Shown here piece by piece: positions 44,612 through 49,552 of a DNA stretch of 64,000 nt. The position numbers and the translations under genes were made by a program. The notes beneath the pieces are model-generated. The model made no database searches. It was not told where the DNA came from and saw only the letters and a list, made by a program, of their open reading frames with translations. How positions within the stretch are numbered: the stretch's first letter is position 1; each line of letters starts with the position of its first letter. The stretch covers positions 22,630-86,629 of the forward strand of contig VGLJ01000012.1 of NCBI GenBank assembly GCA_016866775.1, written 5' to 3'. This stretch comes from Candidatus Rokuibacteriota bacterium. Its GTDB lineage: Bacteria > Methylomirabilota > Methylomirabilia > Rokubacteriales > CSP1-6.

Positions 44612-45907
44612 CTACTGCAGGAGCGCGAGCGGCTCGTCGACCAGATCAGCCAGGGCGCCGAGGAATTGCGCGCCTCGCGCGCCGTCCAGTGCGCGGTGGT
44701 CGCACGAGAGCGTCAGGACCATCATGGGAACGACAGCCGGCTGGCCGTTGATCGGGACGACGCGATCCGCGATGCGCCCGACCGCCAGGATCGCCGCCTG
44801 CGGCGGGTTCACGATCGCGTTGAACGCGTCGACGCCGTACATGCCGAGGTTGGAGATCGTGAACACGCCGCCCGTGATGTCGGCCGGGCGAAGCTTGCCC
44901 GACTGAGCGCGCGCGACCAGCTCCTCACGACGCGCCGCGATCTCCGCCAGCGACAGCGTGTCCGCGCGGTGAATGACCGGGACGACGAGCCCGTCCTCGA
45001 TCGCGACGGCGAGCCCGATGTCGATGTCCGCGTGCTGGACGACCGTGCCGTCTTTCCACGAGACACGCGCGCGCGGATGCCGGACCAGAGCCGCGGCCAC
45101 GAGCTTCACCAGCAGATCGGTGTACGTGACGCCCGCCGGCGCCTTCGTGCGCCACGAGATCAGCCGGCTCGCGTTCACCTCGCGCACCAGGTAGAAGTGG
45201 GGCGCCGTCGTCCAGCTCTGCGTCATCCGCTCGGCCATGACGCGCCAGACCGTGCCGACCCCGCCGGTCGCCGCCGCGGCGGGCTGAGCCGCCGGCACGG
45301 CCGACGGCCGAGCCACGTCGACGCGCGCGGTCTCGACATCGGACGCGAGCACGGCACCACCCGGGCCGGAGCCCCGCACCGCCGTCACGTCGACACCACG
45401 CTCCGCCGCCAGACGACGCGCCTTCGGCGACGCCGCCATGAGCCGCGCGCCGTTGCCGGCGCCGCGAGCCCTCTCGACGTACGCGAGCACGTCCGCTTTC
45501 TCGACGCGCCCGCTCCTCGTCCGGATCTGCGCGATGTCGACGCCGTGCTGCTCGGCGAGCTTCCGCGCGAGCGGCGACGCCTTCACCGGTGCGCCCGGGA
45601 CGCCTTCCTCCGCTCCACGTGAGACGGGTGGCGACTCGGGCGCCGATGCGGTAGCCGCCGGCGCGGCGGCCTCCTCCGCGATCACGGCAATCGTCCGGCC
45701 GACCGGCACCACGTCGCCTTCGCGCGCGGTGACGTCACGCAACACCCCCGCCGCCGGCGACTCGATCTCCACCGTGATCTTGTCGGTCTCGATCTCGACG
45801 ATCGGCTCGCCCTTCTCCACGCGCGAGCCCGGCGTCTTGAGCCACCGGATGACCTTGCCGGTCTCCTGCGCCATCTCGAGCGCGGGCATGATGACGTTCG
45901 CGGGCAT
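44612..45907 (-). CDS. 2-oxoacid dehydrogenase E2 (dihydrolipoamide acyltransferase)
   Basis: 431 aa. Lipoyl domain at the N-terminus with the lipoylated Lys 43 in IETDKITVE, then two E3/E1-binding PSBD modules (ASPLARKLAEQHGVD and ASPKARRLAAERGVD), then the acyltransferase with the catalytic His in CDHRALDGARG near residue 400. Two PSBDs and acetoin/TPP-type features suggest a branched or acetoin-type complex. E1-beta lies at 46907; no E1-alpha or E3 is in the window. GAGGA precedes the ATG, directly after the small ORF at 45918. Confidence 0.93.
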   Translation of the reverse strand: MPANVIMPALEMAQETGKVIRWLKTPGSRVEKGEPIVEIETDKITVEIESPAAGVLRDVTAREGDVVPVGRTIAVIAEEAAAPAATASAPESPPVSRGAEEGVPGAPVKASPLARKLAEQHGVDIAQIRTRSGRVEKADVLAYVERARGAGNGARLMAASPKARRLAAERGVDVTAVRGSGPGGAVLASDVETARVDVARPSAVPAAQPAAAATGGVGTVWRVMAERMTQSWTTAPHFYLVREVNASRLISWRTKAPAGVTYTDLLVKLVAAALVRHPRARVSWKDGTVVQHADIDIGLAVAIEDGLVVPVIHRADTLSLAEIAARREELVARAQSGKLRPADITGGVFTISNLGMYGVDAFNAIVNPPQAAILAVGRIADRVVPINGQPAVVPMMVLTLSCDHRALDGARGAQFLGALADLVDEPLALLQ

Positions 45908-45917
45908 CGTCAGTTCC

Positions 45918-46037
45918 TCACGCGAAGATCTCGGCGAGCGTCGGCGTGACATCGGGGAAAGCCCGCGGCGACACCGTCGATGTCGCGCCGGTCACGCGCG
46001 TGAACCGCCGCCGTGCGACGTCGATCTCGACCGCCAT
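45918..46037 (-). CDS. 39-aa small ORF coupled to the E2 gene
   Basis: It has a very strong RBS (GGGGGAGGAG) five bases before ATG 46037 and ends in TGA 45920-45918, which overlaps the GAGGA used by the E2 gene ten bases later. The peptide starts MAVEIDVARRRFTRVTGA and ends LAEIFA. No family recognised. It could be a leader peptide coupling E2 translation, or the remnant of a longer protein. Confidence 0.5.
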   Translation of the reverse strand: MAVEIDVARRRFTRVTGATSTVSPRAFPDVTPTLAEIFA

Positions 46038-46167: not shown

Positions 46168-46530
46168 ATGGCACACTTTCACAAGCGCGTCACGATCTCC
46201 GGCGACAAGTCCCTTTCGGTCCGCATGCTCGTCGACACGGGGACCACGTACTCCGTGGTCTCGAAGGCGCTCGCGCGCGCGGCCGGCATCACGCCGCTCC
46301 CGGCGGTCATGATGACGCTCGCGGACGGGCGCCGGCGGAAGCTGCGTCCCGCCACGGCCATCCTGCGGGTCGGTCATCGCGAAGCGCCGGCGACCGTGCT
46401 CGTCGGCGACGTGGCCGAGCCGATCCTCGGCGTCGAAGCGCTCGACGTGCTCGGGCTGGCGGTCGATCCGAGGCGGCAGCGGCTCACGCCGACGCGTCCG
46501 TACACGGTCCGGCTCGGCGGCTATCGCTAG
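46168..46530 (+). CDS. Retropepsin-like aspartic protease
   Basis: 120 aa, one retroviral-type half-protease. The catalytic MLVDTGTTYSVVS is near residue 20, VMMTLADGRRRKL forms the flap region, and VAEPILGVEALDVLGLAVD the closing alpha-turn. Active as a homodimer; cytoplasmic, with no signal peptide. TATACC lies seven bases before the ATG, without RBS. Its stop is 12 nt from the end of the extended DsrE-like gene. Confidence 0.85.
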   Translation: MAHFHKRVTISGDKSLSVRMLVDTGTTYSVVSKALARAAGITPLPAVMMTLADGRRRKLRPATAILRVGHREAPATVLVGDVAEPILGVEALDVLGLAVDPRRQRLTPTRPYTVRLGGYR

Positions 46531-46542
46531 CGGCGCGCGGCG

Positions 46543-46899
46543 TCAGTACGACACCACGCGGTCGTACTCCATCATGAGCTGCGCGTAGCGCTTGACGTCG
46601 ATGACCTGAAACGGCTCGAGGTCTTCATCCAAGACCCCCCGGGTCTTGGCTCAGCCGCCTCAGACGTAGACGGCGATGTTCTGCTCACGCGCGAACTGGT
46701 AGAGCTCCTCGAGGGGCGGCTGGCCGTGCGGAAGCACGTGCTTGCGCACGTCGGCCTTCGCCAGCACCGTCGCGTCGAGCGCGAGGACGATGCCGACGTC
46801 GATGCCCGCCTCCTTCGCGCCCTTCGCGAGGAAGAACGGCATCGTCGCGCGCGATGCGTTGTCGTGGCCGTGCGTGGCGGAGATCAGCAGCTTCGCCAT
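46543..46899 (-). CDS. DsrE-like protein, predicted selenoprotein with two in-frame TGA codons (UGGU motif)
   Basis: From ATG 46899 the frame meets TGA at 46662-46660 after 79 residues, TGA again at 46653-46651, and ends at TGA 46545-46543, giving 118 aa, the usual length of this DsrE/YchN-fold family. MAKLLISATHGHDNASRAT, PPLEELYQFAREQNIAVYV, and after the TGAs AKTRGVLDEDL and KRYAQLMMEYDRVVSY match the family throughout. Homologues have CGGC at xGGx, so both TGAs replace redox cysteines. A 9-bp hairpin follows (46629-46649). Read conventionally it would be a truncated 79-aa protein. Seven bases after the E1-beta stop, same operon. Likely a thiol/sulfur-relay or redox protein. Confidence 0.85.
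46629..46649 (-). promoter_or_regulatory. Putative bacterial SECIS hairpin
   Basis: On the mRNA CCAAGACCC pairs fully with GGGTCTTGG around a GGG loop. The stem begins one base after the second UGA; the loop starts 10 nt after it and 19 nt after the first UGA. The loop G is as expected of bacterial SECIS elements. It lies inside coding sequence and lacks a U-tract, so it is a poor intrinsic terminator. Confidence 0.75.
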
Positions 46900-46906
46900 G
46901 GCGTCC

Positions 46907-47893
46907 TCACTTCTTCTGACAGAGGTCGCGCGCGATCTCGAACACGCGCTGGTCGTTCGGCACCGTGAGGTCCTCGAGCACCGGCGAGAACGGCACCGGC
47001 ACGTCCATCGCGCCGACGCGCTTGACGGGCGCATCGAGGTAGTAGAACGCGCCGTCCGCGATCACCGAGGCGATCTCCGCCGTCACGCCATAGCGCTCGT
47101 AGCCTTCGTCCACCACGATCGCGCGCGAGGTCTTCTTCGCGGAGTCGATCAGCGCGTCCTTGTCGAGCGGCCACGTCGTGCGCGGGTCGATCACCTCCGC
47201 GCTGATGCCGACCTCGTCGAGCTTCTTCGCTGCGCCGAGCGCCACGTCTACCATGCTGCTCGTCGCCACGATCGTGACGTCGCGGCCCTCGCGCTTGACC
47301 TCGGCCACGCCGAACGGGATCGTGTAGTCGTCGTCCGGCACCGGGCCCTTGACCCGGTACATCATCTTGTCCTCGAAGATCACGACCGGGCTGTCGTCGC
47401 GGATCGCGGTCTTCATCAGGCCCTTCGCCTCGTACGGCCCTGACGGCAGCGCCACCTTCAAGCCGGGCACGTGGCTCACCCACGCGTGCAGCGACTGCGA
47501 GTGCTGCGCGGCCGAGCGCCGCGTCGCGCCCAGCGTGGTCCGGAAGACGATCGGCACCTTGATCTTGCCGCCTGACATGTAGTGCGCCTTTGCCGCCTGG
47601 TTCACCATCTGGTCCATCGTGAGCGTGATGAAGTCGCCGAACATCACGTCCACGATCGGCCGCATGCCCGTCATCGCGGCGCCGACGCCGATGCCCGCGT
47701 AGCCCGGCTCGGAGATCGGCGTGTCGATGATCCGCTTGGTGCCGAACTCGTCGACGAGGCCGAGCAGCGTCTTGAACGGATGGCCCGCCTCCGCCACGTC
47801 CTCGCCGATGAGGAACACGCGCGGGTCGCGCCGCATCTCCTCCGCGATCGCCTCGCGCACCGCCTCGCCGTAGGTCAGCTCACGCACGCCCAT
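46907..47893 (-). CDS. 2-oxoacid dehydrogenase E1 beta subunit (transketolase pyrimidine-binding type)
   Basis: 328 aa. MGVRELTYGEAVREAIAEEM then FLIGEDVAEAGHPFK with the Glu that activates TPP, IDTPISEPGYAGIGVGAAM, and the C-terminal transketolase domain with AIVVDEGYERYG. It needs an alpha subunit with the TPP diphosphate site, which is not in the window. TGATG overlap with the EthD-like gene; the DsrE-like gene follows 7 nt later. Confidence 0.93.
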   Translation of the reverse strand: MGVRELTYGEAVREAIAEEMRRDPRVFLIGEDVAEAGHPFKTLLGLVDEFGTKRIIDTPISEPGYAGIGVGAAMTGMRPIVDVMFGDFITLTMDQMVNQAAKAHYMSGGKIKVPIVFRTTLGATRRSAAQHSQSLHAWVSHVPGLKVALPSGPYEAKGLMKTAIRDDSPVVIFEDKMMYRVKGPVPDDDYTIPFGVAEVKREGRDVTIVATSSMVDVALGAAKKLDEVGISAEVIDPRTTWPLDKDALIDSAKKTSRAIVVDEGYERYGVTAEIASVIADGAFYYLDAPVKRVGAMDVPVPFSPVLEDLTVPNDQRVFEIARDLCQKK

Positions 47894-48531
47894 CACTTGC
47901 CTCCGTCCCGGACGTAGCGTCGCAGCACGAGGCGAATCCGGTCGCGGAAGTGCGGCGTGATACGCGTGGTCCACTCGCTCTGGCGCGCCACGTCCCACTC
48001 CTTCGACTCGACGACCTCGGGCCCGGTCAGGTGATAGAGCGCGACGTACTTCGGTCCGCCCACGGTCGCGCGGAAGCGGCGCGCGGACAGCACGCCGGGC
48101 ACCGCGCTCAGCGCGGCGATGTGCTCCTTGTCGTACCACGCGTTGAAGTCGGTCTCGTGCTCGGGCGGGACGGTCATCGCGTTGATCAGGAGCCCGCCGG
48201 CGTTCGCCGGCGGCAGCTCGTCGCCCGGCAGGATCTGCTCGCCCTCGTAGCGCATGATCCGCTGAACCTTCGCGACGATCCGTTTCGACCACGGCGAGAG
48301 GTTCTCGCCGCCGATAGCCTTGTAGCCCGGGCTCTGCATCACCGAGATGTCGGCGAGATCGTAGGTCGCCATCGACACGCGCGGATCGTCGGCGCCGATC
48401 CACCGCTGACACACGAGGAACCCGGGCACGCGCTGCCGCTCCGGCAGGTGCTCGGTGTCGTACCAGTCGTGGAACTCGTCATCGGCCGCGCGCCCGATGT
48501 TCATCGCGGCGATCAGAATGCCCTTGGCCAT
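47893..48531 (-). CDS. Two-repeat EthD/DUF4286-like dimeric alpha-beta barrel protein
   Basis: 212 aa made of two similar halves: FHDWYDTEHLPERQRVPGF near residue 19 and FNAWYDKEHIAALSAVPGV near 128, each followed by a strand with an Arg-rich end. The W-Y-D-x-E-H motif is shared with EthD-type ferredoxin-fold proteins, often found beside catabolic enzymes as small isomerases, monooxygenases or chaperones. Role unknown. It overlaps VOC and E1-beta genes by one base each, so it is firmly in the operon. Confidence 0.82.
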   Translation of the reverse strand: MAKGILIAAMNIGRAADDEFHDWYDTEHLPERQRVPGFLVCQRWIGADDPRVSMATYDLADISVMQSPGYKAIGGENLSPWSKRIVAKVQRIMRYEGEQILPGDELPPANAGGLLINAMTVPPEHETDFNAWYDKEHIAALSAVPGVLSARRFRATVGGPKYVALYHLTGPEVVESKEWDVARQSEWTTRITPHFRDRIRLVLRRYVRDGGK

Positions 48532-49058
48532 CACTTGCGCTCCGCCAGCGCCTCGCGATCCTCGAGCCCCAGCCGGGTCGTCGAGATCGTGAAGCGATCC
48601 TGCATCCGGGCGTCGTTGGCGTTGAGGTTGCGCGTGAAGCAGCAGTACTCGAGCTGGAGGCCGTTCGGATCCTTGAAGTAGATCGACTTCGCCCAGTCGT
48701 GGTCGACCACCTCGGTCACTTCGACGCCCTTCGCGATGAGTTCGTTGCGCTTCTCCTCGAGCCCGGCCTCCGAGCCGGCCTCGAACGCGAAGTGGTAGAA
48801 CGCGCTCGGCACGCCGAGCCCGCGCGTGATCCCGGCGTCGTACTCCGACGGCACGCCGGGCACGTCCCGCGCTTCCATGAACGCGATCAGCTGATCGCGG
48901 CCCGTGTCGAAGAAGATGTGGCGGATGCGGCCGCCTTCCTTGACCGTGATGACGTCGCAGCGCACGGCCTTGAAGCCGAGGACGCGCTCGTAGAAATCGC
49001 GCGTCTTGTCGAGGTCCAGCGTCGAGAGCCCGATGTGCGAGAAGCCTTTGTGCGACAT
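48531..49058 (-). CDS. VOC/glyoxalase-fold (extradiol dioxygenase-like) protein
   Basis: 175 aa. FSHIGLSTLDLDKTRDFYE with the first ligand His near residue 8, AFYHFAFEAGSEAGLEE near 87 with the second, and IYFKDPNGLQLEYCCFT near 135 with the Glu. The FKDPNG block is common to dioxygenases and lactoylglutathione lyase-like enzymes. First gene of the operon ending with the DsrE-like protein; GGAGG precedes ATG. Confidence 0.9.
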   Translation of the reverse strand: MSHKGFSHIGLSTLDLDKTRDFYERVLGFKAVRCDVITVKEGGRIRHIFFDTGRDQLIAFMEARDVPGVPSEYDAGITRGLGVPSAFYHFAFEAGSEAGLEEKRNELIAKGVEVTEVVDHDWAKSIYFKDPNGLQLEYCCFTRNLNANDARMQDRFTISTTRLGLEDREALAERK

Positions 49059-49291
49059 GGCGCGTCCTCCAGGGACATGATCCTACCCGCTGCCGGCGCG
49101 CTCGGCCAGCGCCTCGACGTGTTTCAAGAAGAAACGCGTTCCTTCCGGCGCCGTTCGCGCCGGCAACACCCAGCATCACCCGAGACATGGTTCGTGGTCC
49201 GCAGTCCGTCCAGCGACGGAAGGAGGAGAGGCACGATGGCGAAAAAACGGCGATGGTGCGACCCCGCCATCGCCGGCACGCCGCCCACCGA

Positions 49292-49552
49292 ATGGGCGTC
49301 CGGACCCCGACGGCCTCCAATGATCGCGCGGCTCGGGACTCCGCCGCCGTCGTCGCCGCACGCTCGCGAACCGCGCTCGACCTGTGCGCACTGGGCGAGT
49401 CGATGCGTCGAGCCCAGCTGCGCCGTGAGCATCCGTCCGCCTCCGACGACGAGATCGAAGCGCTGTTGGCTGCCTGGCTCGAAGAGCGCCCCGGTGCCGA
49501 GCACGGGGATCGCTGGGGCCGCCCGATTTCCTGGCCACCCTCACGTCGCTGA
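49292..49552 (+). CDS. Small hypothetical protein of a nucleotidyltransferase-linked pair
   Basis: 86 aa. The recognisable part is [20 protein letters not shown] then [21 protein letters not shown], a helical family that is usually encoded directly before a small nucleotidyltransferase. The start is uncertain; ATG 49292 is the last that keeps the whole block. The downstream partner survives only as fragments, so this is probably a decaying pair. Confidence 0.5.

What the first reader, a model, noticed from the sequence alone, without database searches (positions are those of the whole stretch)
46543..46899. DsrE-like selenoprotein with a double-selenocysteine UGGU motif and SECIS hairpin
The DsrE-like frame passes two TGA codons, exactly where family members carry the two cysteines of CGGC, and then continues for 36 well-matching residues to a normal 118-aa length. 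A perfect 9-bp stem with GGG loop begins one base after the second TGA and lacks a U-tract. Two independent sequence errors landing on both Cys codons plus a fitting hairpin is very unlikely. Ordinary annotation would call a truncated 79-aa gene. It sits directly after E1-beta of a 2-oxoacid dehydrogenase, suggesting a redox or sulfur-relay link.
Basis: partly seen in the sequence, partly recalled or inferred. Interest (0 to 1): 0.95.

Follow-up and report, generated by a model that had tools for sequence, protein, structure and literature searches.

The report
Twin-UGA gene with two interlocking hairpins
This bacterial DsrE-family gene has two in-frame UGA codons that are predicted to be read as selenocysteine rather than stop, and its messenger holds two conserved hairpins that share one strand and so would likely take turns, one for each codon.

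Summary
On the minus strand (46899-46543) a 118-aa DsrE-family frame carries UGA at codons 80 and 83, a UGGU motif. The genome has selA, selB, selD and tRNA-Sec(UCA). Of 95 genomes of the phylum, 17 (one assembled as a single contig) keep both UGAs in a close orthologue and 2 more in a divergent gene; 100 of 111 database relatives are called as exactly 79 aa, cut at the first UGA.

I found a second hairpin (B), loop 20 nt after UGA2, whose 5' arm is A's 3' arm, so the two cannot form together. A qualifying hairpin for UGA2 exists in 19 of 19 UxxU genes and 0 of 33 UxxC relatives. B's stem codons show no synonymous change although the gene changes freely elsewhere; A is at its most stable synonymous form in 12 of 17 genes.

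Likely mechanism: A serves UGA1; translocation melts A and frees its strand for B, which serves UGA2. Against it, B alone could serve both. DsrE selenoproteins are listed as UxxC, so this is a new variant.

The parts
46546..46899 (-). dsrE-like double-selenocysteine gene, 118 codons, ATG start, UGGU at residues 80-83
   Evidence: Read-through translation; PF02635 59.7 bits; AlphaFold2 pLDDT 97.1 and DsrE fold
46660..46662 (-). UGA1 = residue 80, predicted Sec; aligns with the Cys of E. coli TusD (2d1p_A) and the first Cys of CKTC in YchN (1jx7)
46651..46653 (-). UGA2 = residue 83, predicted Sec; aligns with the second Cys of CKTC in YchN
46629..46649 (-). Hairpin A, 9 bp, GGG loop at 46640-46638, 19 nt after UGA1; predicted SECIS of UGA1
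   Evidence: covariation of the same hairpin in UxxC relatives
46618..46638 (-). Hairpin B, 8 bp, GGATG loop at 46630-46626, 20 nt after UGA2; predicted SECIS of UGA2
46631..46637 (-). Shared strand GGGTCTT: 3' arm of A and 5' arm of B, so A and B exclude each other
   Evidence: sequence
46543..46545 (-). Third TGA, read as the terminator; of the 16 other close orthologues 10 end at this place with TAA or TAG, 5 with TGA, and 1 is cut by its contig end
46905..46908 (-). GAGG, a probable ribosome-binding site overlapping the E1-beta stop codon (46909-46907)
   Evidence: sequence, (inference)
46907..47884 (-). Pyruvate dehydrogenase-type E1 beta, directly upstream; context not found around relatives
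   Evidence: NF006667 399.1 bits, cut-off 321
44612..45952 (-). Dihydrolipoyl acyltransferase (E2), downstream on the same strand
   Evidence: PF00198 241.5 bits

Best explanation
The gene has two UGA codons nine bases apart that are predicted to be read as selenocysteine, and its mRNA holds two overlapping hairpins that would likely act in turn as the insertion signals, the first hairpin for the first UGA and the second hairpin for the second. Shown from sequence: the UGGU frame, its conservation, the Sec machinery, both hairpins, their spacing (19 and 20 nt from UGA to loop), the shared strand, and the conservation of both stems at synonymous sites. Inferred: while UGA1 is in the ribosomal A site, hairpin A presents its loop to SelB with Sec-tRNA. 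Moving on three codons (9 nt) draws the 5' arm of A into the ribosome and frees GGGTCTT, which pairs with AAGACC(TC) to form B, now at the right distance for UGA2. Also inferred: the product is a DsrE/TusD-fold protein whose U80 takes the place of the sulfur-carrying Cys, with U83 as its resolving partner, so that it works as a selenol/diselenide redox or sulfur-relay protein. My confidence by step: both UGAs are Sec 0.93; B is the SECIS of UGA2 0.85; A-to-B handover 0.5.
For: Machinery in the same genome: selB 380.8 bits (cut-off 242.25), tRNA-Sec 70 bits (47) with anticodon tca, selA 592.3 (267.9), selD 335.5 (125), itself a 1-TGA gene. Both TGAs in 17 close orthologues (own included) and 2 divergent genes among 95 genomes. 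A hairpin meeting the published bSECIS criteria for UGA2 in 19 of 19 UxxU genes and at the matching place in 0 of 33 UxxC genes (28, 5). In 16 UxxU genes (G094 left out as a copy of G093) the B-stem codons 88-90, 93 and 94 are identical and codon 92 is GAA in 15 (GCA, Ala, in G085), against 0 of 45 other columns with a conserved residue; the loop codon 91 varies. With a looser choice of columns (same residue in at least 10 genes) 3 of 71 are codon-invariant, all two-fold. On the gene tree of 17 the stem codons 85, 86, 88-90, 92-94 have 0 synonymous changes; the loop codons 87 (A) and 91 (B) have 4 and 5; the other four-fold columns average 4.07, none of 29 at 0. Codon 86, which serves A alone, is ACC in 13 of 13 Thr although ACC is 25 of 65 Thr elsewhere; A sits at its most stable synonymous form in 12 of 17 genes. 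A covaries in the 15 (of 28) UxxC genes aligned: 5 of 10 pairs with two-sided changes; 0 of 500 shuffles as high on four measures, 57 of 500 on the fifth. E. coli fdhF has its loop 18 nt after UGA.
Against: In one sequence alone B is not remarkable: synonymous shuffles with the genes' codon usage do as well in 282 of 2000 cases for the window and in 48-160 of 2000 for the six others tried. At equilibrium with nt 11-50 after UGA1 free, A is the main fold in only 2 of 16 genes (own genome 0.93, G085 0.96); B wins in 14. B's loop is 29 nt from UGA1, inside the 16-37 range, and in the NF041115 family one hairpin seems to serve both UGAs. The lower part of A has a mismatch in 15 of 17 genes, and in G081 A is only -6.4 kcal/mol. 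No selB over the cut-off was found in one UxxU genome (G026, about 95% complete) and only a part in G074. The 17 orthologues form one clade, so they are not 17 independent trials. No protein or expression data.
Confidence: 0.6

Rival explanations
1. Hairpin B alone serves both UGAs (29 nt and 20 nt to its loop), as one hairpin seems to do in the UxxU metal-binding family; hairpin A is a leftover from a UxxC ancestor or a mild competitor.
For: All 18 fetched NF041115 UxxU loci have their best hairpin with its loop 31-32 nt after UGA1, 22-23 nt after UGA2. B is the equilibrium fold in 14 of 16 genes even when UGA1 is being read. In the divergent gene G077b, hairpin A in its usual register is gone.
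Against: Codon 86, used by A only, never changes synonymously while each of 29 other four-fold columns does; A is at its synonymous optimum in 12 of 17 genes; in the window's own genome A is the main fold at UGA1. G077b has another GC-rich hairpin starting just after UGA2, loop 15 nt after UGA1.
Confidence: 0.35
2. Hairpin A alone serves both UGAs, and B is a by-product of the conserved GVLDEDL peptide and codon bias.
For: Synonymous shuffles often give a hairpin as stable as B; A is the obvious strong stem in the window.
Against: The A loop is 10 nt from UGA2, so its 5' arm (nt 2-10) would lie inside the ribosome; B's codons TTG and GAA are minority codons (16 of 178 Leu, 20 of 84 Glu elsewhere in these genes) yet TTG is in 16 of 16 and GAA in 15 of 16; 0 of 33 UxxC relatives have a qualifying hairpin there.
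Confidence: 0.05
3. The gene is a decayed or truncated 79-aa gene and the UGAs are stops.
For: Standard annotation calls it so (100 of 111 hits exactly 79 aa).
Against: Protein conservation goes on to the end in 16 of 17 orthologues (G091 is cut by its contig end); the part after UGA1 supplies helices 81-86, 91-94, 102-111 and strands 98-100, 114-117 of the predicted fold; both TGAs fall on the Cys positions; the Sec machinery is present.
Confidence: 0.03

Closest known systems
DsrE-like selenoprotein (PF02635, UxxC), listed in PMC1088965, PMC2398784, PMC9312934 and PMC13188914 (passages seen)
   Same: Same Pfam family, Sec at the first motif position, a SECIS right after it
   Different: Here both positions are UGA and a second, overlapping hairpin is present; the tables list DsrE as UxxC (PMC13188914: one Sec)
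UxxU_metal_bind selenoproteins (NF041115; 'putative mercuric reductase' UxxU in PMC13188914)
   Same: UxxU with UGAs nine bases apart, in the same phylum
   Different: Unrelated protein; one hairpin 31-32 nt after UGA1 is in reach of both UGAs
Prx-like UxxU selenoproteins (PMC2398784, PMC13188914, passages seen)
   Same: UxxU redox motif
   Different: Different family; their SECIS arrangement was not examined here
TusD/DsrE/YchN sulfur-relay fold (2d1p_A, 2hy5_C, 1jx7_A)
   Different: Those chains carry Cys; YchN has CKTC, TusD a single Cys at the U80 position
E. coli fdhF SECIS
   Same: Loop 18 nt after UGA
   Different: One UGA, one hairpin, GGTC loop, bulged stem
Eukaryotic SELENOW with UxxU (PMC7539508, passage)
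   Same: UxxU in a protein whose relatives have one Sec
   Different: Eukaryotic; there the SECIS lies outside the coding region (recalled), so the spacing problem does not arise

Membership tests
DsrE/DsrF-like family (PF02635) | Profile score above the gathering cut-off | tested here: met
   59.7 bits, cut-off 22.7; 44.6 bits in the genome-wide scan
DsrE/DsrF-like family (PF02635) | DsrE fold | tested here: met
TusD/DsrE sulfur-relay proteins | Cys (here Sec) at the active position | tested here: met
   U80 aligned with a Cys in 3mc3 (E 5.6e-8), 3pnx (4.8e-6), YchN (0.0064) and TusD 2d1p_A (0.061, weak); U83 with a Cys in YchN only
TusD/DsrE sulfur-relay proteins | Partner subunits and persulfide transfer | not tested
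   No search for dsrF/dsrH or tusBC was made; transfer needs a biochemical assay
Bacterial selenoprotein | In-frame UGA aligned with Cys in homologues | tested here: met
   Both positions are UGA or Cys in 23 of 23 rows
Bacterial selenoprotein | selA, selB, selC, selD in the genome | tested here: met
Bacterial selenoprotein | Sec found in the protein | not testable with these tools
   Needs mass spectrometry or 75Se
bSECIS model (PMC13188914 Fig 2 legend) - hairpin A for UGA1 | Loop 3-9 nt, stem 4-16 bp, G in the first two loop positions, 16-37 nt, MFE <= -7.5 | tested here: met
   GGG, 9 bp, 19 nt, -14.2 in the window; with mismatches allowed 16 of 17 main-clade genes are at or under -7.5, G081 at -6.4
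bSECIS model - hairpin A for UGA2 | 16-37 nt spacing | tested here: not met
   Loop 10 nt after UGA2
bSECIS model - hairpin B for UGA2 | Same five criteria | tested here: met
   19 of 19 UxxU genes have a qualifying hairpin, window -10.3, 8 bp, GGATG, 20 nt
DsrE-like UxxC selenoprotein | UxxC motif | tested here: not met
   UGGU
NF040913 SaoD/DsrE | Score above the equivalog cut-off | tested here: not met
   20.3 bits, cut-off 152

The most novel reading that the evidence does not exclude
A translation-driven RNA switch: two mutually exclusive bacterial SECIS hairpins share one strand, and the ribosome's own nine-base advance from the first UGA to the second swaps one for the other, so that one short stretch of coding RNA recodes two stop codons in turn.
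Probability: 0.45. Interest if true: 0.87.

Novelty: new variant of a known kind. Interest (0 to 1): 0.74.

Why it matters
How one mRNA reads two nearby UGAs as selenocysteine in bacteria, where each UGA is thought to need a hairpin at a set distance, is rarely testable. Here nature gives a controlled comparison in one gene family: UxxC genes have hairpin A only, UxxU genes have A plus B, and an unrelated UxxU family has a single hairpin placed far enough away (31-32 nt) to be in reach of both UGAs. This suggests a simple reach rule (inferred): a second UGA nine bases on needs a new hairpin if the old loop lies less than about 25 nt from the first UGA. It also corrects a family that databases hold as a 79-aa fragment, and gives a compact reporter for SelB mechanics.

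Tried and rejected
Pseudogene or sequencing error: rejected. Link with the 2-oxoacid dehydrogenase: not found around relatives within the flanks held; Pfam scans of 10 flanking ORFs around four relatives gave Zn-dependent alcohol dehydrogenase, PD-(D/E)XK nuclease, RNase E/G, MlaA, EngA-type GTPase, Rieske and ABM domains, and nothing for 3. Rfam scan of the window at gathering thresholds: nothing. Profile A1 against PDB sequences: nothing at 1e-3; the wider profile A4 gave matches. Genome-contig scan: 3 loci. My contiguous-stem scan does not find the bulged E. coli fdhF hairpin (empty result), so it is stricter than nature. One of the 34 one-TGA rows (G019:C128) was fetched but its motif was not recovered, so 33 were tested (28, 5). 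G094 was dropped before the counts as a copy of G093; it was kept. The covariation count used 15 of the 28 UxxC genes. The tree used 46 of 47 genes (one too short); it puts the 17 close UxxU genes in one clade (100/100) and the two divergent ones elsewhere, but does not settle how many times UxxU arose. In print: the 10 paper searches, seen as listings, and passages of five papers (PMC1088965, PMC2398784, PMC9312934, PMC13188914, PMC7539508) turned up no DsrE UxxU and no overlapping bacterial SECIS pair; a term look-up in PMC12013277 found none of the terms. The groundwater MAG paper cited there as ref 66 (63 selenoprotein genes in one Methylomirabilota MAG) and PMC12013261 are not held and may list such genes.

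Full report

Host and machinery. The window lies in a 5.13-Mb draft genome, 97.5% complete. It has selB (380.8 bits), selA (592.3), selD (335.5, with one TGA of its own) and tRNA-Sec (70 bits, anticodon tca). Named relatives are Candidatus Rokubacteria/Rokuibacteriota and Methylomirabilota MAGs, and one labelled Patescibacteria group.

Distribution. Of 95 genomes of the phylum, 17 (own included) hold a close orthologue with both TGAs, 2 hold a more distant gene with both (G075, G077), and 34 rows have one TGA. G084 is a single contig. The 17 form one clade (100/100) apart from the UxxC genes. Among 111 protein hits 100 are exactly 79 aa; one (P0031) is 82 aa and ends VYVCGG, which suggests a CGGU variant. 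selB is over the cut-off in 83 of 94 genomes; of the 19 UxxU genomes 17 have it, G026 shows none and G074 only a part at a contig end.

Two hairpins. The published bacterial SECIS model asks for a 3-9 nt loop, a 4-16 bp stem, a G in the first two loop positions, 16-37 nt from UGA and MFE <= -7.5 (PMC13188914 Fig 2 legend, passage). Hairpin A (46649-46629, CCAAGACCC GGG GGGTCTTGG) has its loop 19 nt after UGA1 and 10 nt after UGA2. Hairpin B (46638-46618, GGGGTCTT GGATG AAGACCTC) has its loop 20 nt after UGA2 and 29 nt after UGA1. They share GGGTCTT (46637-46631) and cannot form together. A qualifying hairpin for UGA2 is present in 19 of 19 UxxU genes and absent at the matching place in 28 of 28 UxxC genes and in 5 more; the best UxxC value is -5.7. 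For the first position 28 of the 33 UxxC genes pass (23 of 28 and 5 of 5), 27 of them with the loop at 19 nt and one at 18. Of the 17 close orthologues 16 have B's loop at 20 nt and G085 at 19. The two divergent UxxU genes have a different second hairpin, loop 26-27 nt after UGA2, not built on A's strand.

Selection on the stems. For one sequence B is no surprise: 282 of 2000 synonymous shuffles with the genes' codon usage do as well for the window, 48-160 of 2000 for the six other genes tried; with uniform usage 9-47 of 2000. The case rests on comparison. In 16 UxxU genes the B-stem codons GGG GTC TTG. GAA GAC CTC are the same throughout, save GCA (Ala) for GAA in G085, while 0 of 45 other conserved-residue columns are codon-invariant, and the loop codon 91 is GAT in 10 and GAC in 6; with columns chosen more loosely 3 of 71 are invariant, all two-fold. 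Counting changes on the tree of 17 genes: codons 85, 86, 88-90, 92-94 have 0; codon 91 (loop of B) 5; codon 87 (loop of A) 4; codon 95, just after B, also 0; elsewhere four-fold columns average 4.07 with none of 29 at 0, six-fold 4.38 with none of 13 at 0, two-fold 2.35 with 2 of 20 at 0. Hairpin A in the UxxU genes: codon 86, outside B, has 0 changes, ACC in 13 of 13 Thr against 25 of 65 elsewhere, and A is at its most stable synonymous form in 12 of 17 genes. Codon 85 is also invariant, but CAG is 46 of 48 Gln anyway; codon 84, in the lower stem, has 3 changes. In 15 UxxC genes (of 28) A covaries: 92% of cells paired, 5 of 10 pairs with two-sided change; four of five measures are reached by 0 of 500 shuffles, the fifth (further pair types) by 57, and slid versions reach at most 62% paired and a covariation score of 0.081 against 0.221.

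How it probably works. With UGA1 in the A site, A stands at the usual distance (E. coli fdhF: 18 nt). Nine bases later the whole 5' arm of A (nt 2-10 after UGA2) is in the ribosome and its 3' arm is free to pair with AAGACC(TC) as B, again at the usual distance. This is inferred. Against a strict handover: with nt 11-50 after UGA1 free, equilibrium folding gives A in only 2 of 16 genes (own genome 0.93, G085 0.96) and B in 14; after UGA2, B is 0.71-1.00 in all 16. So in most genomes A would have to win by kinetics or SelB binding, or B serves both UGAs.

An instructive contrast. In the UxxU_metal_bind family (NF041115) of the same phylum all 18 fetched UxxU loci have their best hairpin with the loop 31-32 nt after UGA1, so 22-23 nt after UGA2; 17 at 32 nt, and L102 at 31 nt with -6.9, which misses the -7.5 limit. 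Two of three UxxC and two of three CxxU loci use the same place. One hairpin can therefore probably serve two UGAs if it is far enough away. DsrE's ancestral hairpin was too near, which would explain why UGA2 came with a second one.

Context. E1-beta ends at the gene's likely ribosome-binding site and E2 lies downstream, but tblastn did not find these genes in the flanks held of relatives, so the neighbourhood says little about function.

Known and new. Papers seen in passages list DsrE selenoproteins as UxxC and UxxU for Prx-like, metal-binding and FmdB proteins. UxxU in DsrE and overlapping bacterial SECIS hairpins were not met in the searches and passages named under Tried and rejected.

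Noticed in passing
L094-L122 (NF041115 loci): UxxU metal-binding selenoproteins are common in this phylum; their best hairpin lies 31-32 nt after UGA1, in reach of both UGAs (18 of 18 fetched UxxU loci).
   Followed up: yes
G000:C31:24695-25639 (L124): The genome's selD carries one in-frame TGA, so selenophosphate synthetase is itself a likely selenoprotein.
   Followed up: no
L091, G000:C30: A second DsrE selenoprotein (UGAC) in the same genome with a 10-bp hairpin A and no hairpin B.
   Followed up: yes
P0031: One database relative ends VYVCGG at 82 aa, which suggests a CGGU variant with Cys at the first position; no DNA was available.
   Followed up: no
46168-46530 (+): Small clan AA aspartic protease, convergent with the DsrE gene.
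   Followed up: no
47893-49320 (-): The long ORF upstream of E1-beta gave no E1-alpha match; its end resembles DUF4286 just under the cut-off. No E1-alpha was seen directly next to E1-beta; no wider search was made.
   Followed up: no
G026: A UxxU genome about 95% complete in which no selB over the cut-off was found: assembly gap or loss.
   Followed up: no
L074 (G077), L075 (G075): Divergent UxxU DsrE genes with their own second hairpin (CCGACCAG-GAT-CTGGTCGG in G075, much the same in G077); G077's hairpin A has shifted register, with Ile in place of Val.
   Followed up: partly
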